In this document: positions 18,834-32,451 of the stretch, piece after piece
Layout: each line of letters starts with the position of its first letter
Position numbering within the stretch: position 1 is the first letter of the stretch
Origin: Clostridium chauvoei
GTDB taxonomy: Bacteria; Bacillota; Clostridia; Clostridiales; Clostridiaceae
Direction: 5' to 3'
Length of the DNA stretch: 64,000 nucleotides
NCBI RefSeq assembly: GCF_002327185.1
Contig: NZ_CP018624.1
Span: 1,488,001 to 1,552,000, forward strand
Translations under genes and position numbers: made by a program
The notes under the pieces: model-generated
Database searches by the model: none
What the model was told of the DNA's origin: nothing
Seen by the model: only the letters and a program-made list of their open reading frames with translations

Positions 18834-19523
18834 ATTTAAATACATCTCATGTTAATGTTAATCTATATATACTCATCATCATAGTCAAAACTATAAATCA
18901 TTTAAATACATCTCATGTTAATGTTAATCCTTTAGTATAAGTTCCAACAAATATATTGCCTACCATATTTAAATACATCTCATGTTAATGTTAATCGAAT
19001 TGCAATCAGTTGCTTTTGAAAGTTAAATATGTATTTAACTACATCTCATGTTAATGTTAATCTGGAATGGTATAACTGGTATGGGCAGATGGATAAGATT
19101 TAAATACATCTCATGTTAATGTTAATCTTCAATCTCTTATAATCAATTAACCATTCCATCAATATTTAAATACATCTCATGTTAATGTTAATCCTAGCTT
19201 TGAAGAAACACAAGACTATCCTAAGCAGATATTTAAATACATCTCATGTTAATGTTAATCTACAAGCCAAAGATTAATAGAAGAGTGGTATTTTAATTTA
19301 AATACATCTCATGTTAATGTTAATCGCAGAGTTTAAGCAAAAGGTATATTTTACCAAGTGCCATTTAAATACATCTCATGTTAATGTTAATCTAATTTAT
19401 CTAAAAAATACGGAACAAGAAATCCTTTATTTAAATACATCTCATGTTAATGTTAATCAAGAAAAAAAGAATCAGTGATACTAGTTTCAATTAATTTAAA
19501 TACATCTCATGTTAATGTTAATC
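18834..19523 (-). CRISPR. Leader-distal CRISPR segment, 11 repeats and 10 spacers
   Basis: Eleven 30-bp repeats (core ACATCTCATGTTAATG on the plus strand) start at 18834, 18900, 18967, 19033, 19098, 19164, 19231, 19296, 19363, 19429 and 19494, with spacers of 35-37 bases. The repeat at 19033 has one substitution (AACTAC for AAATAC). The cas genes and leader show that transcription is on the minus strand, so this is the old end of the array. It is cut off from the leader by the IS256-family element. The interrupted spacer is 19524-19558. Confidence 0.97.
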
Positions 19524-19739: not shown

Positions 19740-20906
19740 TTAAGCTAATTCATCTTTTAATTGATCTTCAAATATTATTGATAGCTCCGCTAGCGTAGCA
19801 CCCCAATTATGTATAGGTTGAGTCCATTTTTCTAGTATCTCCATTGTTGCTAAGTAAACACACTTATTTAAAGATTCATCAGTTGGGAATATGACTCTAA
19901 CTTTAGTGAATTTACGTATTTGACGATTAAAACCTTCTAAGATATTTGTAGTATAAATCATCTTTCTTATAGTTGGAGAGAAGTCAAAAAATGTTGAAAG
20001 GTTACTCCAATTGTTATACCAGGAATCTATTACTATTCCATATTTATCTCCCCATATCTCCTTTAAATTATCTAGCTGTGCTAACGCAAGTTCCTCTGTT
20101 GTAGCCTTATAAACCTCCTTCAAATCTTTCATAAATGCTTTTTTATCTTTTGAAGCTATGTATTTTATTGAATTTCTTATTTGATGAACAATACATGTTT
20201 GAATATTTACTGATGGAAATACTGTTTTTATAGCTTGTGGAATACCTTTTAATCCATCCATACAAGCAATTAAAATTTCTTTTACACCTCTATTTTTTAA
20301 ATCATTGCAAATTCCTAACCAGAATTTAGCACCTTCAGCTTCATCAACCCATATACCTAAAATATCTTTATATCCTTCCATAGTGTATCCTAAGCATATA
20401 TAGACAGCCTTGTTAACTATCTTTCCATTACTTCTAACTTTAAAGTACATAGCATCTAAATAAACTATTGGATATATTTTATCTAATACTCTATTTTGCC
20501 ATTCGGCGGCGCTAGCAAGCACTTTATCAGTTATTTTAGATACCATCGATGGTGATATAGTTATTCCATATAAGTCTTCAATTTCAGCCTGAATATCAGA
20601 TGTTGACATACCTTTAGCATATAAAGATATAATCTTTTTATCTAACTCAGTACACACGGTTTCATATTTTTTTATAATTTGTGGCTCAAATTCAGCATTT
20701 CTATCACGGGGTACGTCTAGGTCGACGTCACCGAAGGAACTTCTTAAATTCTTGCGACTATAACCATTCCTGTAGTTCTTCTTAGTTTGATCAACTGCTT
20801 CTACACGTTCATATTTATTTCTTCCTAGATGTTCTTCCATTTCACCTTCTAATATATTTTCAAGAACATCTTTAACTAATCTTTGTATTAATCCGTTTTT
20901 ACCCAT
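19740..20906 (-). CDS. IS256-family transposase
   Basis: The 388-residue protein matches IS256-type mutator transposases: an N-terminal EEHLGRNKYER, a first catalytic Asp in YPIVYLDAMYFKVR, a second in ILIACMDGLKGIPQAI, the C/H motif CIVHQIRNS, and the catalytic Glu in YTTNILEGFNRQIRK. The ATG at 20906 is the first canonical start. However, the open frame continues upstream for 24 further codons that look like the usual family N-terminus (TRKIDTNFDYNEEIKRC). The only ribosome binding site, GGAG, lies 5-8 bases before ATT (20981) and CTG (20978), so translation may start at a non-AUG codon and give about 412 residues. It is read in the same direction as the CRISPR array. Confidence 0.95.
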   Translation of the reverse strand: MGKNGLIQRLVKDVLENILEGEMEEHLGRNKYERVEAVDQTKKNYRNGYSRKNLRSSFGDVDLDVPRDRNAEFEPQIIKKYETVCTELDKKIISLYAKGMSTSDIQAEIEDLYGITISPSMVSKITDKVLASAAEWQNRVLDKIYPIVYLDAMYFKVRSNGKIVNKAVYICLGYTMEGYKDILGIWVDEAEGAKFWLGICNDLKNRGVKEILIACMDGLKGIPQAIKTVFPSVNIQTCIVHQIRNSIKYIASKDKKAFMKDLKEVYKATTEELALAQLDNLKEIWGDKYGIVIDSWYNNWSNLSTFFDFSPTIRKMIYTTNILEGFNRQIRKFTKVRVIFPTDESLNKCVYLATMEILEKWTQPIHNWGATLAELSIIFEDQLKDELA

Positions 20907-21086: not shown

Positions 21087-23284
21087 ATTTAAATACATCT
21101 CATGTTAATGTTAATCTAAAAACAATATTTTATTTCATCATTATTTTCTACCATTTAAATACATCTCATGTTAATGTTAATCTTCATTTTACCAATTATA
21201 CTGTTGTACATTTCCTTAATTTAAATACATCTCATGTTAATGTTAATCTCCAATTGGTCCTTGATTCCCATCAGCTCCTTTTATTTAAATACATCTCATG
21301 TTAATGTTAATCAGCCGGTGTTGGGAAAGGTCTCACTTGATTTACAATATTTAAATACATCTCATGTTAATGTTAATCTCATCGTACTCTTTATTAGAAT
21401 TCCTAGCCTTTCTGATTTAAATACATCTCATGTTAATGTTAATCAGAGATAGTTAAATATAGAGATAAAAGCAAAGAATATTTAAATACATCTCATGTTA
21501 ATGTTAATCATACCATATCGGGTGTTATGAGGAAAACCCTAAGTAATTTAAATACATCTCATGTTAATGTTAATCTCATTATTTTTTGATGTACTATATT
21601 CTTCTTGCTCATTTAAATACATCTCATGTTAATGTTAATCATAAAAAAATAGGCATATTAATACACCTCTTTCAAAATTTAAATACATCTCATGTTAATG
21701 TTAATCCAGGGAAAATATGGACGTAGCTAACCGAAACTTTAAATTTAAATACATCTCATGTTAATGTTAATCACCCCGCTTATTTTGTTAGCTAGTTCGT
21801 AAGTTGTATTTAAATACATCTCATGTTAATGTTAATCTTAAATGTTTTATAGCTCTCTTTATCCTCCTACTTACATTTAAATACATCTCATGTTAATGTT
21901 AATCTGATACGGGAATGTTAGATTTAGCTGAAATAATATAATTTAAATACATCTCATGTTAATGTTAATCTTCCTTTCCACTATTCTTTATTCTTGCACT
22001 TGTACATTTAAATACATCTCATGTTAATGTTAATCGTTAAACAGTAAAAGCTTTTATGCTCATTCAATCTAATTTAAATACATCTCATGTTAATGTTAAT
22101 CAACTTCTCTTCATCATTTAACTTCTTCAAAGCATCATTTAAATACATCTCATGTTAATGTTAATCGTATTCTCGTTATCAAGGATTGGGATATGTTAAA
22201 AGATTTAAATACATCTCATGTTAATGTTAATCTTTAATATACCCATTTAAATTATCCCTCCAAATTTATTTAAATACATCTCATGTTAATGTTAATCAAT
22301 TATATGCGATTTGCAAATACAGAAAGCTAACAAATTTAAATACATCTCATGTTAATGTTAATCTGTTTTAAAAAATAATAAGCTTGGGAGGAAAGTCCAA
22401 TTTAAATACATCTCATGTTAATGTTAATCAATGCTTTTGGATTAATCCACACATAAACTGACTTATTTAAATACATCTCATGTTAATGTTAATCCTTATT
22501 TTCTTTCTAATTTCCTTTTCTTTTTCACTATTTAAATACATCTCATGTTAATGTTAATCTTGTATAAAAGTTCCTTGTGGGTGAAAATTTTTAACATTTA
22601 AATACATCTCATGTTAATGTTAATCCACAACTTATAGCAAATGTTATATCATCAGAAGGATTTAAATACATCTCATGTTAATGTTAATCTGTAAATCTCT
22701 AGTTCTATTTTATTAGTGTCAGATGATTTAAATACATCTCATGTTAATGTTAATCGAACTTGCACTTGCTATATCTATAGTATTGCACAAAATTTAAATA
22801 CATCTCATGTTAATGTTAATCAATTGTTATATCAACATTGTCCTCACCAGATTCAGCATTTAAATACATCTCATGTTAATGTTAATCTGTAATTTTCCAG
22901 CAGGGTCACTACCTAGCTTATCTATTTAAATACATCTCATGTTAATGTTAATCCATTAAAAGATTCATTCTTATCATCTTTAGGAGAATATTTAAATACA
23001 TCTCATGTTAATGTTAATCAAATATTTTTTTATCAACTCTATATATTTCTCCTTTATTTAAATACATCTCATGTTAATGTTAATCTCATATTCATGTATT
23101 TCATCAAATACAACGACTCCTGATTTAAATACATCTCATGTTAATGTTAATCTATATAAGGGAATTTTGCACCCGGCGGAACACAATTTATTTAAATACA
23201 TCTCATGTTAATGTTAATCCTTCTTCTATAGGTTTTATTCTCCAGTTGTTATCTATTTAAATACATCTCATGTTAATGTTAATC
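21087..23284 (-). CRISPR. Leader-proximal CRISPR array, type I-B, 34 repeats and 33 spacers
   Basis: Thirty-four 30-bp repeats run from 21087 to 23284, with spacers of about 34-37 bases. On the transcribed minus strand the repeat ends in ATTTAAAT, the expected 8-nt 5' handle of mature crRNA after Cas6 cleavage. All copies I read appear identical. Adaptation genes lie next to the youngest end (23284). Two spacers can be read as phage-like coding sequence (see findings). The spacers seem all different. Confidence 0.98.
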
Positions 23285-23451: not shown

Positions 23452-23742
23452 TTATATTATTAAACTTTCTCCTGTTGTTTGCCCTTGAACTCCTATTATT
23501 TCCTCTCCAAAAACATCCCCATTTAAAAGTTTAATAATACATATAAAATCTTCTTCTTTTTCTATAACTTTATTTAAATCTTTTTTCAATAAAATTAATT
23601 TTGAAGGAGTTATTCCTCCTCTGAATACTGATTTTTGAAAATGTGATAAATATTTTTTACATACTTTAAATACTTTATTTACACGTTCTTCCTTTATATC
23701 ATAAAATATAAATACGTAATTATAATTAATTTGTTTTTTCAA
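23452..23742 (-). CDS. cas2: CRISPR-associated endoribonuclease/adaptation protein Cas2
   Basis: Small ferredoxin-like protein with the Cas2 N-terminal strand FIFYDIKEERVNKVFKVCKKY (conserved Asp) and HFQKSVFRGGI. Cas2 dimers bridge two Cas1 dimers to integrate new spacers. I prefer TTG 23742, one base after the cas1 stop and 11 bases from AAAGGA. An ATG at 23754 overlaps the cas1 end but touches the ribosome binding site. Length is about 96 residues, normal for the family. It is the last gene of the cas operon, facing the leader. Confidence 0.93.
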   Translation of the reverse strand: MKKQINYNYVFIFYDIKEERVNKVFKVCKKYLSHFQKSVFRGGITPSKLILLKKDLNKVIEKEEDFICIIKLLNGDVFGEEIIGVQGQTTGESLII

Positions 23743-23743
23743 T

Positions 23744-24742
23744 TTACATCCCATCCTTTAAGTTAAATGGTAAAAAGGTTTTATCTTCCATAATGAATTT
23801 AATCAATTTATAACAATCTAATTTTATAGCTGTTCTATATGTTACTTTTCTTTTAAGCTTTGGATGTAAAAATACTGATTCTAATCTATCTTCAAATGCT
23901 TTAATAAATATATTTCTTCCATCCTCATTAAGAAGACAATAATTAACACTTTTATCAAAGTGCTTTGATACCTGTATTCTTCTATTGTTTACAAGTTCAA
24001 AAATAGTTTTAAATACAATTATAGGTTTAAATACTTCACTAATATCTAAACTTAAAGAAAATCTCCCCTCAGAAGGTTCATGTAAATAACTAATTCTTTG
24101 ATCTAAATGAGTTTTATATATAGCAGATATAGTCTTTGTATAAAGCAATGAATTTCCAAAGGAAATCATTGCATTTATAGGATTATCTGGCGGTCTTTTT
24201 ACTCTTTTATTCATTATAAAGTCTTCTGGTAAAATATTCTTAAATTCCGAATAAAATCTTTGCCATACCTCTCCTTCTAATGCCATTAAACTATTTATAT
24301 TTTCAATATAGTCAACTTTCTTTAAAAAATCTTTTTTTATCCAATCTATAGTTTCTTTAACTTCTTTTTTATTATGTTTATAATAATGGTATAATACCTC
24401 CATAATATTTATACCAATTCCTCTTACTATACTTCTTGCAATAATTATTCTATTCCTTTCAAAAGTTTTTACTTGATTTATTAATAATTTTCCGCTATTA
24501 TATTTGTTTTTAGGATAAAATGTTCCACTATATCCTTCATAATAATTAAAAAAATGTACTGTTATATTATTCCTAGATATAAAATCTAATAGCTTAGTAT
24601 TTATACTTATTTCATTTAGACAGTATATTTCACTAGTTCCTTCAACTGGAATATATACATTTTTTCCATCTTTTCTAAAACACAAAGAATTATCTTTTCT
24701 TGTTAACTCTCCCATAGAAGTAATATATTTAGTACTTCCCAT
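23744..24742 (-). CDS. cas1: CRISPR-associated integrase Cas1 (type I-B)
   Basis: The 332-residue protein carries the three metal-binding positions of Cas1: Glu in SLMALEGEVW, His in YLHEPSEGRFS, and the acidic residue in LSLDISEVFKP. It forms the Cas1-Cas2 spacer integrase. ATG 24742 follows AGGAGG at ideal spacing. It begins 9 bases after the cas4 stop. The protein appears intact, so adaptation could still work whatever the state of cas3. Confidence 0.97.
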   Translation of the reverse strand: MGSTKYITSMGELTRKDNSLCFRKDGKNVYIPVEGTSEIYCLNEISINTKLLDFISRNNITVHFFNYYEGYSGTFYPKNKYNSGKLLINQVKTFERNRIIIARSIVRGIGINIMEVLYHYYKHNKKEVKETIDWIKKDFLKKVDYIENINSLMALEGEVWQRFYSEFKNILPEDFIMNKRVKRPPDNPINAMISFGNSLLYTKTISAIYKTHLDQRISYLHEPSEGRFSLSLDISEVFKPIIVFKTIFELVNNRRIQVSKHFDKSVNYCLLNEDGRNIFIKAFEDRLESVFLHPKLKRKVTYRTAIKLDCYKLIKFIMEDKTFLPFNLKDGM

Positions 24743-24751
24743 AAAAACCTC

Positions 24752-25246
24752 CTAGATATAACAATATTCGTAATAAGCACATCTTTTACATTTGCTTTTA
24801 TTTAAGATATCAGGCACATTATTAGAATTTATTAATATTTTTATATCTCTTATATGTTTTTCTAGTTCTTTAATAAGTTCACTATTTAATTCTACATATA
24901 TTATTTTATTTTTAGTTTTATTTTTTTCTATAAATTCTAATTTCCCTTTTCTTCTAATCCCTTTATCATTTAGTGCATTTAAATAAAAAATCAATTGCCA
25001 TTTTGCAGCTTCAGGATCTGCATCAGATTTTTTTATTTCTGTTAAATAATCTTTTGTAAGTTTATCTATCTTAATATTATCTATCTCTATCTCTGTATTT
25101 TTATTTTCTTTAATCTCATGTAGTGCTTTACCTATTTTAACATTTTCACTATTGTCCTCAAAATTCAATCTGTTTCCATGTAAATAACATTGTCTTTTGC
25201 AATGAAAGTAATAATTTATTAACGTTCCATTTATTTTCATACTCAT
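24752..25246 (-). CDS. cas4: CRISPR-associated exonuclease Cas4 (Cas4a type)
   Basis: The 164-residue RecB-like protein has the first cysteine region YYFHCKRQCYLHGN, GKALHE, and a C-terminal cysteine cluster KCKRCAYYEYC, which together would bind an iron-sulfur cluster. Cas4 trims prespacers and selects the PAM. Its ATG overlaps the cas3 stop (ATGA), showing translational coupling. Confidence 0.95.
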   Translation of the reverse strand: MSMKINGTLINYYFHCKRQCYLHGNRLNFEDNSENVKIGKALHEIKENKNTEIEIDNIKIDKLTKDYLTEIKKSDADPEAAKWQLIFYLNALNDKGIRRKGKLEFIEKNKTKNKIIYVELNSELIKELEKHIRDIKILINSNNVPDILNKSKCKRCAYYEYCYI

Positions 25247-27805
25247 ATAAACTCACCTACAGTAGACTCAAATCTTTTTTTATCTAACTTCCCATCTATA
25301 AAATAATCCTCTCCATTATCTATATAAATAATATCTCCAACTCTATCGTTATAAGAAAAGTTTTCTTTTGTTTTTATTCTATATATAAAATAATTCATAT
25401 TTGCTCTTACTTCTGATAGTTTTACTGCTTGTTCTGCAAAACTTAATTTATTATCTTTAAGTAATGTTTTATAATTATTCCATACTTCTTCTCCTAAAAT
25501 CTCCTTTCCATTTTTATTTACTTTATAATTTATAAATATTGATATATCATTTTTATCATCATTTATCAATTTCATTCTATCTTCTATATTTTTAAATTTT
25601 AAATTCCCTACTTCATTCTTAAAAAATATCTCTTTATTTAATTTACTAAACTTTTCTGAGTTTTTTTAAGCCTTTTTAGAACTTCTTCATAATAACTTGT
25701 AAAAGACTTATCTATTAAACATTGTCTTATATTTTTATTCTCTATTGTTAAGTCCTCATGACTTCTAACATCTTCTTTATATATTCCTTTTATATCGTCT
25801 AATTTAAAGAAATATACTAAAGAATTTTCTTTTAAACATGATCTATTTATCCTTCCTAAAAATTGTTCTTCACTATGAAAAATAGATATACTCTTAAATC
25901 CTATATCCATATCTATATCAACCCCAGCCTCTATAACTTGAGTTGATATTAAAAGTATATTATTCAAAGTTCTAATTTCATTTAAAATATTTTCTCTTTC
26001 TATTGTATTATCATCACCTGTTAAAAGTCTTATATCAAATTCTAACTCTCCTAATTCTTTTCTTTCTATTAAATAACTATAAAAATCATACGCACTTTTT
26101 TTGCTTATAAATTCAACTAATATTTTTTTATTTTTATGTTTATTTATCATTTCATATAAATCTTCTATTATATTTTTTGAATCTAATAATCTAAAATCTA
26201 TCTTTACTCTTTCTTTAAAAATTCTATTTTCAAAATATTTCTTTCTATCTTCTATAAGATTAACTGATCTAGTATCTGACTCTAATAATAAATCTAAATC
26301 AGGTAATGTTGCTGACATTATTATTATTTTAATATTTAATATTTCTGCATAGTCATGTAAAAATTCAATTATTTCTCCCCAAATTTTATTTTTATAGCTT
26401 TGAATTTCATCCAAAACTATTATACTATTTGCTAGTTGAAAAACCGGAAAAACATCTTCTTTGTTTACTCCAAATAAATACCTAAATATTGATACATGAG
26501 TAGTTAAAATCATTGGATAATTTAAGAATTGTCTATTTAATAATGATTTTTCATATTCTTCAAATTTAATTTCTTCTTCATTTTAACTAATACCCTTTTT
26601 ATTGGATATAGTGAATTAATAATAGCTATTTTATCTAAAACATTTGGTGTTTTTTCATATATATTTTTAAAGTTTTTTATATTTTGTTCTACAAGAGAAT
26701 TGAATGGATAGACATAAAAGATTTTTCTTTTATTTTCTTCTAATAATTTAAAAGCTAAATTATTAGCTACATTACTTTTTCCACTTCCAGTTGGTGCTTC
26801 TAGATAAAATATATTACTATTTCTACTTTTCATTAGACTTTTTTCTGCATCTAAAAACATTTCATTTCTTAAAATATTTATATCATCTATATTAGTAAAA
26901 TCATTAATTTTACCATAATTGTTTTTCTCATAATTTCTTATTGAATTATATATTACTCCGCCTTCATAAGCTTTTCTAAAAATATTACAGTCCTCTATAG
27001 AACCTAAATCTATTATTTCTATATTATTCATAAATTCCGATGTAGAATAATAGTCACAAGCTATAAGTATTGATAATAAAAGTCTTTCGTATATATAAAT
27101 TGTATTTATCTTTCTTATACAATCTTCACTTTCTTTAAGTTTAGTCATATACAGTTTAAAATAATCATATATGCTATTTATTTTTTTATCTGTTAATTTA
27201 ATTTCTCTGCTATATGCATATTTATATAGTTCAATATATTTATCCAATAATGGTAATACACTTCTTAAATCTTTACATATTTTCATTTGATATTCTTCTA
27301 AGTCTGTAATAAATCCTCCATGATGTCTTGATATAATATAAGAATTTAATATCATAAAAGTAAGTATTCCAGTTCTCTCTTTTTTACTTTTTATATTTTT
27401 ACATACCTTTTGAAAATAAATATCTAGATATATTATTGAAGAAATTATAGAATGATTAGAATCATTTCTTGTTTTGAGATGTTCTATATTTAAATTATTA
27501 TTCATTTTTTTCTTTTGAAAAACACCATTTAATTTCCCCATATCATGTAAAGTAATAGTAGAAACCAACATTTCTCTATATATTTTTCTAGCTTCTTCTG
27601 AATAATCCTCTAGCATTATATTTTCTACTTTTAAAAATATATCCTCTAAATTTTTATCTTTCACTATTCTCTTTAAATATTTTTTGCATAAATCTATATG
27701 CTCTTTTAAAGTTTCTTTTTTATTTTCATTTATATGTGCATATATCTTATAATCTTTATTTATTAGTTCATCTATATTAATTTCTTCTAAATATTCTATA
27801 TACAT
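25243..27805 (-). pseudogene. cas3: CRISPR nuclease-helicase Cas3 with two frameshifts
   Basis: Three frames make one Cas3. Segment 27805-26537 has the HD nuclease (TITLHDMGKLNG, ISRHHGGF) and helicase motif I (EAPTGSGKSNVA). Segment 26513-25638 has the DEAH-type box (IVLDEIQSY), MSATLPDLD, TQVIEAGVDIDMD and GRINRSC. Segment 25575-25243 is the C-terminal domain. Between the first two the reading continues as NEEEIKFEEYEKSLLNRQFL if one A is restored in the run at 26581-26584. Between the last two it continues as NSEKFSKLNKEIFFKNEV if one A is restored at 25661-25667. If the shifts are real, target DNA cannot be degraded, while Cascade binding and adaptation would remain. Both are single-base losses in homopolymers, so sequencing error is possible. 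Confidence 0.9.
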
Positions 27806-27851: not shown

Positions 27852-28631
27852 CTATATAAATGTTAAAATTTTACCTTCTATCTCATAAACTTCACAATTC
27901 AATCGTTTTTCTATTGGTTTATTAGTATATACTAGCCCTTCTAACTTATATCTATTAGTTTGTAAATCTAATCCTACAGGTAACATTTCTTCGTACTTAA
28001 ATATTAACTCTTCATCCGTTACATTATCATCATCTAAATCATCTAAATCATCTAAATCATCTAAATCATCTAAATCTAATTCCTTATATTTAAATTCATT
28101 CTTTTTAAAAAAACTATCTATTTTTATGAATCTATCTATAGTTTTTATATTATTTATTCTTTTAATATTTGTAATTTCTGCTAAATGATCATTTTTACCT
28201 AGATATGGTAAGTATATATATGTTCTATCCATTAAAGCATTTGCTATTTTTTGGCTTTCATCATCATTTAAAAGTAAATATATTTCCCAAGAAGGATTTT
28301 CTAACCATTGCTCTTTTATTATTAGATTTCCTCCTTTTTCTTGTGAAGCATAACCCACTGAATTATTAAATATATTTATTTTTTTATCTATAATTCCATT
28401 TTTATTGTTAGGTACTATTGATATCTTTATATCTTTTAGCTTTTGATAAAACTCTGGATATTGATCATCTTTTTTCATTTGATTATATCCTTTATATCCA
28501 AGAATAGCTCCAAAAATACCAACTAACGCCACTTTATGAATGTGTCCATAAGTAAAATATAAATACGAATTAACTTCTGGTTTTTTAAAAAAGGCTGTTC
28601 TTCCTCTTAAAGTAAATTTAATGGCTTCCAT
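27852..28631 (-). CDS. cas5: Cascade subunit Cas5 (type I-B)
   Basis: The 259-residue RAMP protein begins MEAIKFTLRGRTAFFKKPEVNS and has the Cas5 feature GHIHKVALVGIFGAILGYKGY. It binds the 5' handle of crRNA at the foot of Cascade. ATG 28631 is 2 bases after the cas7 stop. An unusual acidic insert of repeated L-D-D (about residues 187-203) is encoded by five perfect 9-bp repeats at 28029-28073. Confidence 0.93.
   Translation of the reverse strand: MEAIKFTLRGRTAFFKKPEVNSYLYFTYGHIHKVALVGIFGAILGYKGYNQMKKDDQYPEFYQKLKDIKISIVPNNKNGIIDKKINIFNNSVGYASQEKGGNLIIKEQWLENPSWEIYLLLNDDESQKIANALMDRTYIYLPYLGKNDHLAEITNIKRINNIKTIDRFIKIDSFFKKNEFKYKELDLDDLDDLDDLDDLDDDNVTDEELIFKYEEMLPVGLDLQTNRYKLEGLVYTNKPIEKRLNCEVYEIEGKILTFI
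28029..28073. repeat. Five perfect 9-bp tandem repeats inside cas5
   Basis: The unit ATCATCTAA on the plus strand is repeated five times and then partially. On the coding strand it encodes repeated Leu-Asp-Asp. A unit change keeps the frame, so copy number can vary without breaking Cas5. Confidence 0.92.
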
Positions 28632-28633
28632 TA

Positions 28634-29581
28634 CTACACCTCTTTTTTAGTAATGATATTATAATATTTAGCTCCCTCTATATCAGCTTCTACTATTGTT
28701 GTGTACGGATTATAATAAATTTCTATATTAGATATCTTTTCTTTTACTTCATTTAATATATTTGTTGCTTTAAATCTTATTATATTTTGATCTTCACTCT
28801 TTTCAAATGAAATATAGTTATCTAAATTAGGTAAATATAATGTTTGTTCTGTTTCTATAAATATACAAAATTCATTTTCACATCCAACTTTTGAATTAGT
28901 TGCAAAAGCTGTAGCTGAATTTAAAGCAACCTCTTTAAATTTAATATAGTCTTTTTCTGTATATCCTTCAGTAACTCCTAAATCTATATAATCTTTATAT
29001 GATAATGGATTTATTGTAAAGGGATAGCAATAATGAGCCTCATCCGTTACAATTTTTGTTCCTAATGTTGAATTTTTTGCTTCCTCTTTATCTTCTTTTC
29101 CTGGTTTTATACTTGCATCTCTAAAAGGTGATAGTATTTGTTGTTCATCAGCTACAGTTTCATCATATAAATTAAAGCCTTGACCTATTTGAACTGCACC
29201 TGTTATTGATATATTGTTTCCTTCTTCTGCAAATGTAGCCCCAAAATTCTTAACATCGACTGCATCAAATAGATTTTTTAGTACGGTTTCAGTATTTTTT
29301 TCTTTCTTTAAATCTTCAATTCCAAAAATATATTCATATCTTTCCTTTAAAGATCTAGGCACTAATACAACACTATCTTTAGTTTTGGAAAGTTTCATAG
29401 ATTTAATATATAAAACTTTTTCACCTGAATTATCCCATAGCTTTTTCATAGGATATTTTAAAGCTTTATCACTACCAAAAATTTCTCCTTTTGAAGTGGT
29501 CTTTGGATATCCAGAAAAATCTGCATTCCAATTAGCCATCTTTGATGATATCCCAATTAATCCATATACTCTCTTATTCAT
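28634..29581 (-). CDS. cas7: Cascade backbone subunit Cas7 (type I-B, Csh2 family)
   Basis: The 315-residue protein starts MNKRVYGLIGISSKMANWNADF and contains GAVQIGQGFNLYDETVADEQQILSPF, the Csh2-type region. Several copies polymerise along the crRNA to form the Cascade backbone. It begins 2 bases after the cas8b stop. No defects are seen. Confidence 0.94.
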   Translation of the reverse strand: MNKRVYGLIGISSKMANWNADFSGYPKTTSKGEIFGSDKALKYPMKKLWDNSGEKVLYIKSMKLSKTKDSVVLVPRSLKERYEYIFGIEDLKKEKNTETVLKNLFDAVDVKNFGATFAEEGNNISITGAVQIGQGFNLYDETVADEQQILSPFRDASIKPGKEDKEEAKNSTLGTKIVTDEAHYCYPFTINPLSYKDYIDLGVTEGYTEKDYIKFKEVALNSATAFATNSKVGCENEFCIFIETEQTLYLPNLDNYISFEKSEDQNIIRFKATNILNEVKEKISNIEIYYNPYTTIVEADIEGAKYYNIITKKEV

Positions 29582-29583
29582 TA

Positions 29584-29961
29584 TTAATCCTCCTTCTTTT
29601 CAAAAAGCAAACTACTACTTAAATATCCTGCAATTATTAAATCTTCATTTATTTTACCTTCAACTTGATATGCTAATACCATATAATACATGTTTTTAAA
29701 TTTTATAAAAGAACTATTAATATCATAATTATATTTCTTATATAAAGATTTTAACTTTTCTTTTATTATATTATCTTTTTTAGCATTAATAATTGGATTA
29801 GCAAGAGATAACGGTTTATTTTTCCCCTTACTTCTAGTAATAAAGAAATTTGCCAATTGTCCTATTGCAAAAAAATATTCATTGTCATTTGATATACTAC
29901 TATCTCTAACTTCTATTTTTTCTCTTAAATCATTCTTTACCTTTGACAATATATCTGCCAT
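29584..29961 (-). CDS. cas11b: Predicted internal Cas11b small subunit translated from within cas8b
   Basis: Inside cas8b, ATG 29961 lies 10 bases after a perfect AAGGAGGAG. The in-frame product (MADILSKVKNDLREKIEV to the cas8b stop) has 125 residues and is mainly helical, which is the expected size and fold of Cas11. Internal translation of Cas11 from cas8 is known for type I-B, I-C and I-D systems. The ribosome binding site here is as strong as any in the operon. This is inference from position and signal. Confidence 0.7.
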   Translation of the reverse strand: MADILSKVKNDLREKIEVRDSSISNDNEYFFAIGQLANFFITRSKGKNKPLSLANPIINAKKDNIIKEKLKSLYKKYNYDINSSFIKFKNMYYMVLAYQVEGKINEDLIIAGYLSSSLLFEKKED

Positions 29962-31317
29962 TTTTTCTTCTCCTCCTTCAAAATATAACTTTAAAGAATA
30001 TCTTAAATTAAATTGATTCATAGCCTTTATAGAATATCCACTTTCTATTGATGATTTCATTAAATCTCTAGATACTTTATTTAATAAAGGCCAAATATTA
30101 TAATCATTCCCTTTATAAAACCAATCAAATAACTTTGCTCTTGATAATAATATACTTCTTTTTAATACATTCTCTTTTATAGATATATCTTCTGAAAAAT
30201 AATTTGTCTTTAAATAATTATTAAATATTATACTATTTATTAATTCTTGCATTTCCTTTCTAGTATCTATAAACCCATATTCCCAATTTATTTTTTTATT
30301 TAAATAAAGTGTTTCATAATTAATGCCTAAAACATTAATAAATTCAAATGGATTTATTAGCATAGGGTTATACTTTGAAATAACATCAAAATTATGAATT
30401 TCAGCTTCTTTTCCCTTTTTAAGCCTTATATAATATCCATTAAAATCCCTATTTAGTGTCTCATTATCTTTTAATGGAATAACCTCATCCCCTATATAAA
30501 TATTATAGAAACCTTGAGCCGATTGATTTAATAGATAATCAAAAACTTTTTTTTGAAATAATGCTTCCTCTTGTGTTATTAAATGTGGAATTTTCACCTT
30601 TCTAGTTTTATTTTCTAAATAAGGTTTCTTTGAATTTAGTCCCATATTATCATTAGGAAGTCCTAATATTTCGTTGTCTACTTTAATATTAAAATCATTA
30701 TTATTATATATGTTAGGTATTAAATAACGCTTGCTTTCTTTTATAAAGTCATCTTCATCATATATAAAAAATATTTTTAAATAATCTTTTTTTTCTATAT
30801 CTTCTTCCACTTTATATATATTTTCTTTAATCCATTCTTTAATTTTAAATATTCTATCCTTATTTACTTCTCCCAATTCTCTTTCAATTTCTATATATAA
30901 CTCTTTAGCTTTACTTTTCTTTTCATATTTACTTATGGGATTAAGTAAAACATTATAATAATTTTCTATAATCTCATTAGTTAACTTTCCATTTTTCAAA
31001 CTTTCTTTTTTTACAAAAAAGCTTAAATAGTTATTACTATGAATTATTTTTTTAGAATCTATAGGCTTATTCATATCAGTTAATTTACTATAGTAATCGG
31101 CTTTAGCTAATAAGCTAAAATTATTTATCGTTCTATCAACATCTTTTGTTTTCTTATTTAATTTTATTTCTTCTTTTTGTATAACTTTTAAATTATTATG
31201 TTCATCTTCCTTTAAAAAAATATATGTTCCATCAGTTGGTACATAACTTCCTAAAATAGCCTCATCTAAATTATCCTTAAAAACTCTTTTAAAGCTATCT
31301 ATAATTTCAGATAACAA
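29584..31317 (-). CDS. cas8b: Cascade large subunit Cas8b (Csh1 family, type I-B)
   Basis: The 577-residue protein (begins MLSEIIDSFKRVFKDNLDEA) is in the large-subunit position between cas6 and cas7. It shows the Csh1 pattern with a central segment LNRDFNGYYIRLKKG and the C-terminal helical region. It recognises the PAM and recruits Cas3. Start is TTG 31317, 8 bases after AAGGAGGG. The last 125 codons probably also make Cas11b. It appears intact, so target binding should be possible. Confidence 0.9.
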   Translation of the reverse strand: MLSEIIDSFKRVFKDNLDEAILGSYVPTDGTYIFLKEDEHNNLKVIQKEEIKLNKKTKDVDRTINNFSLLAKADYYSKLTDMNKPIDSKKIIHSNNYLSFFVKKESLKNGKLTNEIIENYYNVLLNPISKYEKKSKAKELYIEIERELGEVNKDRIFKIKEWIKENIYKVEEDIEKKDYLKIFFIYDEDDFIKESKRYLIPNIYNNNDFNIKVDNEILGLPNDNMGLNSKKPYLENKTRKVKIPHLITQEEALFQKKVFDYLLNQSAQGFYNIYIGDEVIPLKDNETLNRDFNGYYIRLKKGKEAEIHNFDVISKYNPMLINPFEFINVLGINYETLYLNKKINWEYGFIDTRKEMQELINSIIFNNYLKTNYFSEDISIKENVLKRSILLSRAKLFDWFYKGNDYNIWPLLNKVSRDLMKSSIESGYSIKAMNQFNLRYSLKLYFEGGEEKMADILSKVKNDLREKIEVRDSSISNDNEYFFAIGQLANFFITRSKGKNKPLSLANPIINAKKDNIIKEKLKSLYKKYNYDINSSFIKFKNMYYMVLAYQVEGKINEDLIIAGYLSSSLLFEKKED

Positions 31318-32069: not shown

Positions 32070-32270
32070 TTACATATAATAAAATTTTTTTAATATATAT
32101 CCTCCATATGGACCTCTTGTAGATTCTATTTCAACACCAAAATCTTTAAAACTATTTATATATCTTCTTATAGTTGATGATGGTATTTCACTTTTATATG
32201 ATAATTCCTCTAAAGTATGAATCTTCTTATCTGATAAAATTCTTAATATAATTAGTACTCTTCCTGTCAT
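32070..32270 (-). CDS. Short winged-helix regulator (HTH_11 type) leading the cas operon
   Basis: The 66-residue product (begins MTGRVLIILRILSDKKIHTLEEL) is a DeoR/WYL-like helix-turn-helix: SYKSEIPSSTIRRYINSFKDFG forms the turn and recognition helix, and RGPYGGY the wing. The WYL ligand domain that usually follows is absent. I chose ATG 32270, 8 bases from AAGGAG; the ATG at 32276 is too close. It is the first gene of the cas transcript and lies just downstream of a 41-base palindrome, so it is a good candidate for autoregulation of the operon. Confidence 0.75.
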   Translation of the reverse strand: MTGRVLIILRILSDKKIHTLEELSYKSEIPSSTIRRYINSFKDFGVEIESTRGPYGGYILKKFYYM

Positions 32271-32284
32271 GTTCATATCTCCTT

Positions 32285-32302
32285 ATAATATTTACTTATT
32301 GA
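32285..32302 (-). promoter_or_regulatory. Predicted CreR/Cascade target site with TCA PAM upstream of the cas operon
   Basis: On the minus strand, TCA (32302-32300) is followed by ATAAGTAAATATTAT (32299-32285), ending just before the ribosome binding site of the HTH gene. The pseudo-spacer at 32410-32396 reads ATAAGCAAATATTAT: 14 of 15 identical, with the only difference at position 6. TCA-type PAMs are known for clostridial type I-B systems. This is a prediction from sequence. Confidence 0.55.
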
Positions 32303-32322
32303 TTTAGTTTTTTTCTTAAACT

Positions 32323-32363
32323 AAATTATCTAATATATAATACATTTATATATTAGATAATTT
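32323..32363. promoter_or_regulatory. Perfect 18-bp inverted repeat, likely operator
   Basis: AAATTATCTAATATATAA (32323-32340), TACAT, then the exact reverse complement (32346-32363). It lies between the mini-CRISPR and the HTH gene and overlaps the end of the second degenerate repeat. A symmetrical operator for the HTH protein is the simplest reading; it has no T run on the minus strand. Confidence 0.6.
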
Positions 32364-32440
32364 ACATCTCATGTTATGGTTAATAGCTAAACAAAATAAT
32401 ATTTGCTTATATTTAAATACATCTACTGTTAAAGTTAATA
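32356..32440 (-). ncRNA. CreR-like mini-CRISPR: two degenerate repeats flanking a 25-nt pseudo-spacer
   Basis: On the minus strand the first degenerate repeat (32440-32411) differs from the array repeat mainly in its middle but keeps the 3' end GATGTATTTAAAT, that is the complete crRNA handle. A pseudo-spacer of 25 nt (32410-32386) follows, then a second degenerate repeat (32385-32356) with an intact ACATGAGATGTA core. The organisation matches Cas-regulating RNAs (CreR/CreA type) and not an ordinary spacer unit, because the spacer is shorter and the repeats are diverged. Confidence 0.65.
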
Positions 32441-32451
32441 TTTATAATTTA

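What the first reader, a model, noticed from the sequence alone, without database searches (positions are those of the whole stretch)
32285..32440. CreR-like mini-CRISPR predicted to repress its own type I-B cas operon
Seen directly: two diverged copies of the array repeat at 32440-32411 and 32385-32356 (minus strand) flank a 25-nt pseudo-spacer. The first keeps the full crRNA handle (ends ATTTAAAT). The first 15 nt of the guide, ATAAGCAAATATTAT, match 32299-32285 (ATAAGTAAATATTAT) at 14 positions. The only mismatch is position 6, the flipped-out base in type I guides. The site is preceded by TCA, a PAM used by clostridial type I-B systems, and ends just before the ribosome binding site of the first gene of the cas operon. 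Complementarity stops after 15 nt, which favours Cascade binding without Cas3 cleavage. Known: Cas-regulating RNAs of this kind repress cas operons or toxin genes in other lineages. Inferred: autorepression here. The AT-rich sequence raises the chance of an accidental match, so it needs testing.
Basis: partly seen in the sequence, partly recalled or inferred. Interest (0 to 1): 0.88.

Follow-up and report, generated by a model that had tools for sequence, protein, structure and literature searches.

The report
CRISPR guide that mutes cas genes
Next to its CRISPR immunity genes this cattle bacterium carries a tiny decayed CRISPR whose guide RNA matches the switch region in front of those same genes, and relatives carry different guides that fit their own switch regions, so the immune system very probably turns itself down.

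Summary
On the minus strand two decayed array repeats (32440-32411, 32385-32356) flank a 25-nt pseudo-spacer. Its first 15 nt match 32299-32285 at 14 positions (mismatch at 6) behind a TCA PAM. Chance is about 2 in 10,000; the full motif occurs once in the 2.87-Mb genome.

Relatives settle the interpretation. Of 21 mini-CRISPR guides upstream of clostridial type I-B cas operons, 18 have their best match behind TCA or CCA, although no PAM was required. Guides fit their own locus, not others. Mismatches in the first 15 nt fall almost only at positions 6 and 12, bases that Cascade flips out: 21/36 cells versus 3/234 elsewhere. A second set of 36 regions repeats this: 11/22 versus 0/143. This is the signature of Cascade reading DNA.

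The host is Clostridium chauvoei by its array repeat. The locus works like CreR, a published class of cas autorepressors: a new member of a known kind. Caveats: the target lies before a 66-68-aa winged-helix gene that precedes cas6, and cas6 may have its own promoter. RNA and repression were not tested.

The parts
32411..32440 (-). psiR1, degenerate CRISPR repeat with intact 8-nt handle ATTTAAAT
   Evidence: 4 mismatches in 30 to the array repeat; the only exact match of a 20-nt pattern of the repeat's 3' part outside the arrays
32386..32410 (-). 25-nt pseudo-spacer (guide)
32356..32385 (-). psiR2, second degenerate repeat; first 22 nt nearly intact with the ACAT-GAG-ATGT hairpin, last 8 nt lost
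   Evidence: 8 mismatches in 30
32324..32362 (-). 17-bp A/T hairpin overlapping the end of psiR2: probable end of the guide transcript, or operator dyad for the helix-turn-helix protein
   Evidence: z = -3.5 for the 141-nt stretch 32303-32443; by eye, hairpins follow psiR2 also in L049, L058, L060, L080 (4 of the other 20 loci). Role inferred
32300..32302 (-). PAM, TCA
   Evidence: TCA precedes 17 of 21 best matches in the comparative set although no PAM was required
32285..32299 (-). target site matching the first 15 nt of the guide except position 6
32070..32276 (-). first gene after the target: stand-alone winged helix-turn-helix protein, 68 aa (66 aa from the better-placed ATG at 32270; RBS AAGGAG 32284-32279)
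   Evidence: Pfam HTH_11 5e-8; N-terminal part of PADLOC CRISPR-associated WYL model 2.5e-7; in the other 67 genomes of the genus only weak matches (best E 6.8e-6), the ten best in open frames of 194-323 aa
31333..32034 (-). cas6b
29584..31317 (-). cas8b
28634..29581 (-). cas7b
27852..28631 (-). cas5b
25243..27805 (-). cas3 in three ORFs in three different frames (27805-26537, 26513-25638, 25575-25243)
   Evidence: pieces searched apart, nothing mended
23452..25246 (-). cas4, cas1, cas2
21087..23283 (-). main CRISPR array (leader side at cas2, inferred)
18834..19523 (-). second part of the array, split off by a Mutator/IS256-type transposase gene at 19740-20906
   Evidence: transposase Pfam Transposase_mut 4.8e-116; an IS256 split of the array is described for the species in PMC5465433 passages

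Best explanation
32440-32356 is a cas-regulating mini-CRISPR (CreR-type). A short transcript starts just before psiR1, is cut by Cas6 in both decayed repeats, and gives an RNA of about 55 nt: handle ATTTAAAT, 25-nt guide, 22-nt 3' tail. Loaded into Cascade (Cas5b/Cas6b/Cas7b/Cas8b), it binds the DNA at 32299-32285 behind TCA, reading positions 1-5, 7-11 and 13-15. The bound complex sits on the RBS and start of the first ORF and blocks transcription of the helix-turn-helix gene and the cas genes behind it. Because the match ends after 15 nt and the guide is short, Cas3 is not triggered. More Cascade means more repression; array crRNAs, phages or anti-CRISPRs that occupy or disable Cascade relieve it. 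Shown here: the parts, the guide-target match, its rarity, guide-target co-variation across relatives, PAM, and the 6-nt mismatch period. Inferred: transcription, processing, binding, repression, and that repression reaches cas6 and beyond.
For: Match and chance level; single exact site in the genome. Matrix of 21 guides x 21 upstream regions: own-region extension of 10-22 nt behind the PAM (positions 6, 12, 18 ignored) in 17 of 21; only 3 of 420 foreign cells reach 13, all between loci with nearly the same guide. Without PAM and with all 15 positions equal, the best hit of 18 of 21 guides lies behind TCA (17) or CCA (1). Control: of 648 array spacers from the same set of loci, none reaches 14/15 against its own cas upstream region and 6 reach 13/15; of the 21 guides, 17 reach 13-15/15 behind TCA/CCA. 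Mismatches at 6/12: 21/36 cells against 3/234 elsewhere in 1-15; second set 11/22 against 0/143. Rule-based handle scan, hit = best match of at least 13/15 that proves to lie behind TCA/CCA: repeat-like handles 11 of 14, other handles 3 of 99 (10/13 and 4/100, 7/10 and 7/103 at two stricter cut-offs); second set 11 of 21 and 2 of 241. In three relatives (L058, L059, L065) the matched stretch ends a few nt before the RBS of cas6 itself. Published type I-B biochemistry: a mismatch at position 6 has no effect on binding (PMC13199841 passages); guides of 26 nt or less repress without cutting (PMC10551041 passages).
Against: No RNA or expression data. The window's match (15 nt) is shorter than in 14 of the 17 other matched loci of the first set (16-22 nt). 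psiR1 keeps only 3 bp of its hairpin. No promoter-like site was found between the hairpin and the target, and the region as a whole holds no more promoter-like sites than shuffles (6 against 6.9), so where the repressed transcript starts is unclear. A -10-like TAAAAT just before cas6, aligned by eye with relatives' cas6 promoters, could let cas6 escape repression. Three of the 21 guides (L047, L052, L061) have no target behind TCA/CCA. In the second set 10 of 21 repeat-like handles had no hit. No second genome of the species is held.
Confidence: 0.82

Rival explanations
1. CreTA/CrePA-like guard: the guide silences the small first ORF as a separate, harmful or regulatory unit, while cas6 and the rest run from their own promoter. 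Loss of Cascade then switches the small ORF on rather than raising cas expression.
For: The target lies before the 66-68-aa ORF, not before cas6. In C. beijerinckii (L053) and C. tertium (L054) the guide's target lies on the far side of the mini-CRISPR, before a 29-aa and a 36-aa ORF, the order recalled for creTA modules. A TAAAAT element precedes cas6 in the window as in relatives (by eye).
Against: The ORF is a helix-turn-helix protein, not a recognisable toxin; it ends 35 nt before cas6 on the same strand with no terminator-like site found between. In L058, L059 and L065 the same geometry acts directly on cas6.
Confidence: 0.13
2. Chance or leftover: a decaying, silent array remnant with an accidental A/T-rich match.
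For: Very A/T-rich sequence; decayed repeats; cas3 lies in three frames in this assembly.
Against: P about 2e-4 for the window alone; 18 of 21 guides show the same relation with a PAM and a 6-nt mismatch period, replicated in a second set; 648 array spacers do not.
Confidence: 0.04
3. The repeated sequence is a pair of protein binding sites (for example for the helix-turn-helix protein) or an RNA-RNA antisense pair, not a Cascade target.
For: A helix-turn-helix gene is next to it; two dyads lie beside the site.
Against: Of the 18 matched loci of the first set only the window, L046 and L080 have an ORF with any HTH match after the target (L044 has a shorter ORF without one). The guide has the same sense as the mRNA for plus-oriented targets, so it cannot pair with it. 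In the counted pairs the first copy follows a repeat handle and the second a PAM, with mismatches concentrated at 6/12/18.
Confidence: 0.01

Closest known systems
CreR, cas-regulating RNAs (primary paper recalled: Liu et al. 2023, Cell Host Microbe; not held; described in review PMC12737573, passages seen)
   Same: Mini-CRISPR next to the cas operon; crRNA-like RNA guides the type I effector to the cas promoter; limited complementarity; autorepression
   Different: Here clostridial Cas8b type I-B, with a stand-alone helix-turn-helix gene between target and cas6; RNA and repression not shown
CreTA, CRISPR-regulated toxin-antitoxin (PMC8501985, PMC9458426 and PMC10097628, passages seen)
   Same: Two diverged flanking psiR, retained 8-nt handle, partial match behind a PAM, repression by Cascade
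   Different: The controlled gene here looks like a regulator in front of cas6, not a tRNA-sequestering or other small-RNA toxin. Some relatives (C. beijerinckii, C. tertium) look more CreTA-like
Predicted CRISPR-like RNAs / standalone-repeat mini-arrays (recalled: Shmakov et al. 2023, Nucleic Acids Res; not held)
   Same: Computational class of two-repeat mini-arrays with spacers partly matching cas promoters (recalled)
   Different: Whether these clostridial loci are in that set could not be checked
Canonical type I-B CRISPR array of the same locus
   Same: Repeat sequence, handle, orientation; the same Cas6 and Cascade genes
   Different: One 25-nt guide instead of about 36-nt spacers, decayed repeats, target in its own genome

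Membership tests
CreR (cas-regulating RNA) | Two degenerate repeats flanking a pseudo-spacer close to a cas operon | tested here: met
CreR (cas-regulating RNA) | Conserved 8-nt 5' handle | tested here: met
   ATTTAAAT intact in psiR1
CreR (cas-regulating RNA) | PAM-adjacent partial complementarity to the control region of the cas operon, conserved by co-variation | tested here: met
   target lies before the first ORF of the unit that leads into cas6
CreR (cas-regulating RNA) | Regulated unit is the cas operon, not a toxin | tested here: inconclusive
   First ORF is a winged helix-turn-helix protein, then cas6; an internal cas6 promoter is possible
CreR (cas-regulating RNA) | Processed RNA bound by Cascade | not testable with these tools
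   No RNA data available
CreR (cas-regulating RNA) | Cascade-dependent repression of cas | not testable with these tools
   Needs a reporter or mutants
CreTA | A toxin gene (usually a small RNA) under the target promoter | tested here: inconclusive
   No toxin-like feature found; ORF matches HTH_11/WYL N-terminus; toxicity untested
Canonical CRISPR array | Several near-identical repeats with about 36-nt spacers | tested here: not met
   Two repeats with 4 and 8 mismatches and one 25-nt spacer

The most novel reading that the evidence does not exclude
A two-layer switch: Cascade plus the guide represses a small stand-alone winged-helix regulator that heads the cas operon and in turn controls cas through the dyads at 32362-32305. 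Unrelated small ORFs with weak helix-turn-helix matches sit at the same place, directly after the guide's target and before cas6, in E. multiforme (70 aa, transposase-type, best E 0.0014; the C. moniliforme copy is shorter, 41 aa, with no match) and Sarcina ventriculi (110 aa, AraC-type, E 0.044). Clostridia may thus repeatedly recruit regulators as the gene guarded by Cascade, turning loss of Cascade (for example by anti-CRISPRs) into a transcription-factor signal.
Probability: 0.22. Interest if true: 0.75.

Novelty: new member of a known kind. Interest (0 to 1): 0.64.

Why it matters
It gives a ready-made, testable autorepression circuit for clostridial type I-B systems, in genera used for fermentation and in pathogens. 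The comparison is informative beyond this locus: 31 of 77 upstream regions hold natural guide-target pairs, and in the tests that treated all positions alike, mismatches in the first 15 nt fall almost only at positions 6 and 12. Evolution has thus recorded which guide bases type I Cascade reads. The set also gives PAMs (TCA, once CCA) and match lengths (mostly 15-22 nt) for what is presumably repression without cutting. It also warns anyone re-using these endogenous systems for genome editing that an internal guide may compete for Cascade and limit its supply.

Tried and rejected
Array spacers against phages to get the PAM independently: only weak matches, mostly to phages of unrelated hosts (best E 5e-3), no usable PAM. 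A phage-borne copy of the guide: one viral contig matched the 21 specified bases, but it has no repeat around it and looks like chance; no viral contig carries the 28-nt 3' part of the array repeat. An orthologue of the 68-aa protein: none convincing in the other 67 genomes of the genus, only weak matches. Promoter scan: 6 promoter-like sites against 6.9 expected by shuffling, so no weight is put on it. L047 (C. manihotivorum), L052 and L061 (C. punense) have mini-CRISPR-like repeats but no target behind TCA/CCA; L052's guide fits the target of L063, which has nearly the same guide, so L052 probably lost its own target. The perfect inverted repeat near 1157 on the plus strand (7 mismatches to the array repeat) was set aside as an ordinary hairpin.

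Selection caveats: of the 21 guides, 19 were picked by eye, several together with their target, and two (L075, L080) after the target scan; repeat the count by rule. The one search rule misses four of the 18 matched loci (L064 and L067 scored as array copies; L065 has another handle; L075 reached only 12/15). The 41 first-set regions are 38 of the 44 loci (L071 and five weak archaeal hits left out), the window and two loci; four are short (L045, L050, L056, L062). The second set is 36 of 48 regions: 11 duplicates and one of 81 bases were dropped; no 40-base word is shared between kept second-set and first-set regions, and within the sets only L044/L046, L147/L148 and L157/L159 share any. In one search, 10 of 21 repeat-like handles had no hit (one, L163, matched 13/15 behind TCG); of two other handles that hit, one (L119) is by eye a true mini-CRISPR that the rule missed, the other (L131 minus strand) an artefact. 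L129 was found only, where positions 6 and 12 were ignored. The loci share ancestry (L044/L046 for certain), so the Fisher values (9e-19, 1.6e-11) are guides, not exact probabilities.

Full report
What is there. The window is part of a one-contig 2.87-Mb genome. Its array repeat is letter for letter the one published for Clostridium chauvoei, and an IS256 transposase that splits the array is described for that species too (passages of PMC5465433); the window has such a gene, of the Mutator family, at 19740-20906. On the minus strand, between an M20-family peptidase gene and a type I-B cas locus, lie ψR1 (32440-32411), a 25-nt pseudo-spacer (32410-32386) and ψR2 (32385-32356). ψR1 keeps the 8-nt handle; ψR2 keeps most of the 22-nt 5' part. 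Cutting at the positions expected for the array would give an RNA of about 55 nt. ψR1 is the only exact match of a 20-nt pattern of the repeat's 3' part outside the arrays in the whole genome. A 17-bp A/T hairpin follows, overlapping the end of ψR2 (32362-32324); by eye, hairpins follow ψR2 in L049, L058, L060 and L080 too.

The target. The first 15 nt of the guide match 32299-32285 except at position 6. The site follows TCA and ends where the RBS of a 66-68-aa ORF begins. Against 5000 dinucleotide shuffles of guide or of region the match has P = 0.0002 each. TCA plus the 14 read bases occurs once in the genome; with up to 2 mismatches there are 8 sites, against 22 for the pattern read backwards. 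The ORF is a winged helix-turn-helix protein (HTH_11 5e-8) that matches the N-terminus of the CRISPR-associated WYL regulator model (2.5e-7). cas6, cas8b, cas7, cas5, cas3, cas4, cas1 and cas2 follow on the same strand.

Relatives. Cas6 homologues were used to fetch the DNA upstream of cas6 in other clostridia. Many carry a mini-CRISPR with a different guide. In a matrix of 21 guides and 21 upstream regions, the guide matches its own region over 10-22 nt behind TCA/CCA in 17 of 21 cases (positions 6, 12 and 18 ignored); an 18th (L059) fits with a further mismatch at position 3. Of 420 foreign cells only 3 reach 13 nt, all between loci with nearly the same guide. With no PAM required and all 15 positions equal, 18 of 21 best hits still lie behind TCA (17) or CCA (1); the other three (L047, L052, L061) reach only 12/15, behind other triplets. 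Of 648 ordinary array spacers from the same set of loci, none reaches 14/15 against its own cas upstream region and 6 reach 13. TCA and CCA are known clostridial type I-B PAMs (passages of PMC10328091 and PMC4860712).

The six-base signature. In the 18 pairs, positions 6 and 12 are mismatched in 21 of 36 cells; all other positions from 1 to 15 together in 3 of 234. A second, separately fetched set of 36 regions was tested by rule: guides after repeat-like handles, best match chosen without regard to PAM and with all 15 positions equal, counted as a hit if at least 13/15 and behind TCA/CCA. It gave 11 hits among 21 such handles and 2 among 241 other handles; in the 11, mismatches at 6/12 were 11 of 22 against 0 of 143. 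The same kind of count in the first set gave 11 of 14 against 3 of 99 (10/13 against 4/100 and 7/10 against 7/103 at stricter cut-offs). Counting L119 and L129 as well, 31 loci including the window hold such pairs (18 of 41 and 13 of 36 regions); they share ancestry and are not all independent. Type I Cascade flips out every sixth base, and in the Thermotoga maritima type I-B system a mismatch at position 6 has no effect on binding (passages of PMC13199841). So selection has kept just the bases that Cascade reads. This speaks strongly against protein-operator duplicates and antisense RNA as the cause; for plus-oriented targets the guide is moreover identical, not complementary, to the mRNA.

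Which gene is controlled. Three arrangements occur (grouping by eye). (a) The matched stretch ends 0-7 nt before the RBS of the first gene: cas6 itself in C. frigidicarnis, C. simiarum and Peptostreptococcus russellii; a small ORF before cas6 in the window (HTH), C. moniliforme, E. multiforme and Sarcina ventriculi. (b) The target lies further upstream of cas6, in or beside promoter-like sequence (L049, L060, L063, L064, L067, L069, L075). (c) The target lies on the far side of the mini-CRISPR; in C. beijerinckii and C. tertium it lies before a 29-aa and a 36-aa ORF, as recalled for creTA modules, while in L030 no ORF of 20 aa or more with an RBS was found and in L057 the target is just upstream of the mini-CRISPR itself. 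The window belongs to (a). I take repression of the HTH-cas6-cas8b unit as most likely. A TAAAAT element before cas6, aligned by eye with relatives' cas6 promoters, leaves open that cas6 also has its own start.

How it works, and what is inferred. The proposed RNA, Cas6 processing, Cascade loading, DNA binding and transcription block are inferred from the anatomy and from published type I-B work. Guides of 26 nt or less repress without cutting in Parageobacillus (passages of PMC10551041), and 24-nt guides do so in Haloarcula (passages of PMC10989794). The window's guide of 25 nt with 15 matched positions lies in or near that range. In this assembly cas3 is split into three pieces in three frames, which would in any case be expected to prevent cutting; this may be real or a sequencing error.

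Place among known systems. The anatomy and inferred action are those of CreR (described in PMC12737573, passages; primary paper recalled, not held) and closely related to CreTA (passages of PMC8501985, PMC9458426 and PMC10097628). A 2023 computational survey of standalone-repeat RNAs (recalled, not held) may already include some of these loci. The listings of my searches and the passages I read showed no paper describing clostridial cases, but the two most relevant papers could not be read, so I claim only a new member of a known kind. What looks new to me is the helix-turn-helix gene between target and cas6 and the clean six-base evolutionary signature.

Noticed in passing
window 25243-27805, minus strand: cas3 lies in three ORFs in three different frames, which match consecutive parts of intact Cas3 in four of five relatives tried; interference may be lost in this strain, or the assembly has errors.
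   Followed up: partly
L053 (C. beijerinckii HUN142), L054 (C. tertium), L030: Mini-CRISPR guides whose target lies on the far side of the mini-CRISPR; in L053 and L054 it sits before a tiny basic ORF (29 and 36 aa), which looks like CreTA/CrePA-type guarded genes rather than cas autorepression. No such ORF was found in L030.
   Followed up: partly
L046, L044, L080: Small ORFs between guide target and cas6: 70-aa ORF with weak transposase-type HTH matches (E. multiforme), a shorter 41-aa version without a match (C. moniliforme), and a 110-aa ORF with a weak AraC-type match (Sarcina ventriculi).
   Followed up: partly
L069 (Syntrophomonadaceae): The mini-CRISPR is on the strand opposite to cas6, yet its guide matches the region at the presumed cas6 promoter behind TCA with mismatches at 6, 12 and 18 onwards.
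   Followed up: no
L052 compared with L063: L052's guide fits the target of L063, but L052 shows no second repeat and no target, as if recombination between guide and target had deleted the piece between them.
   Followed up: no
L077 (Lachnospiraceae): A guide after a different handle (ATTGAAAC type) matches a TCA-preceded site with the only mismatch in 1-18 at position 6: possibly the same device with an unrelated repeat family. Not counted.
   Followed up: no
L163: Guide match of 13/15 with mismatches at 6, 12 and 18 onwards but behind TCG instead of TCA; not counted.
   Followed up: no
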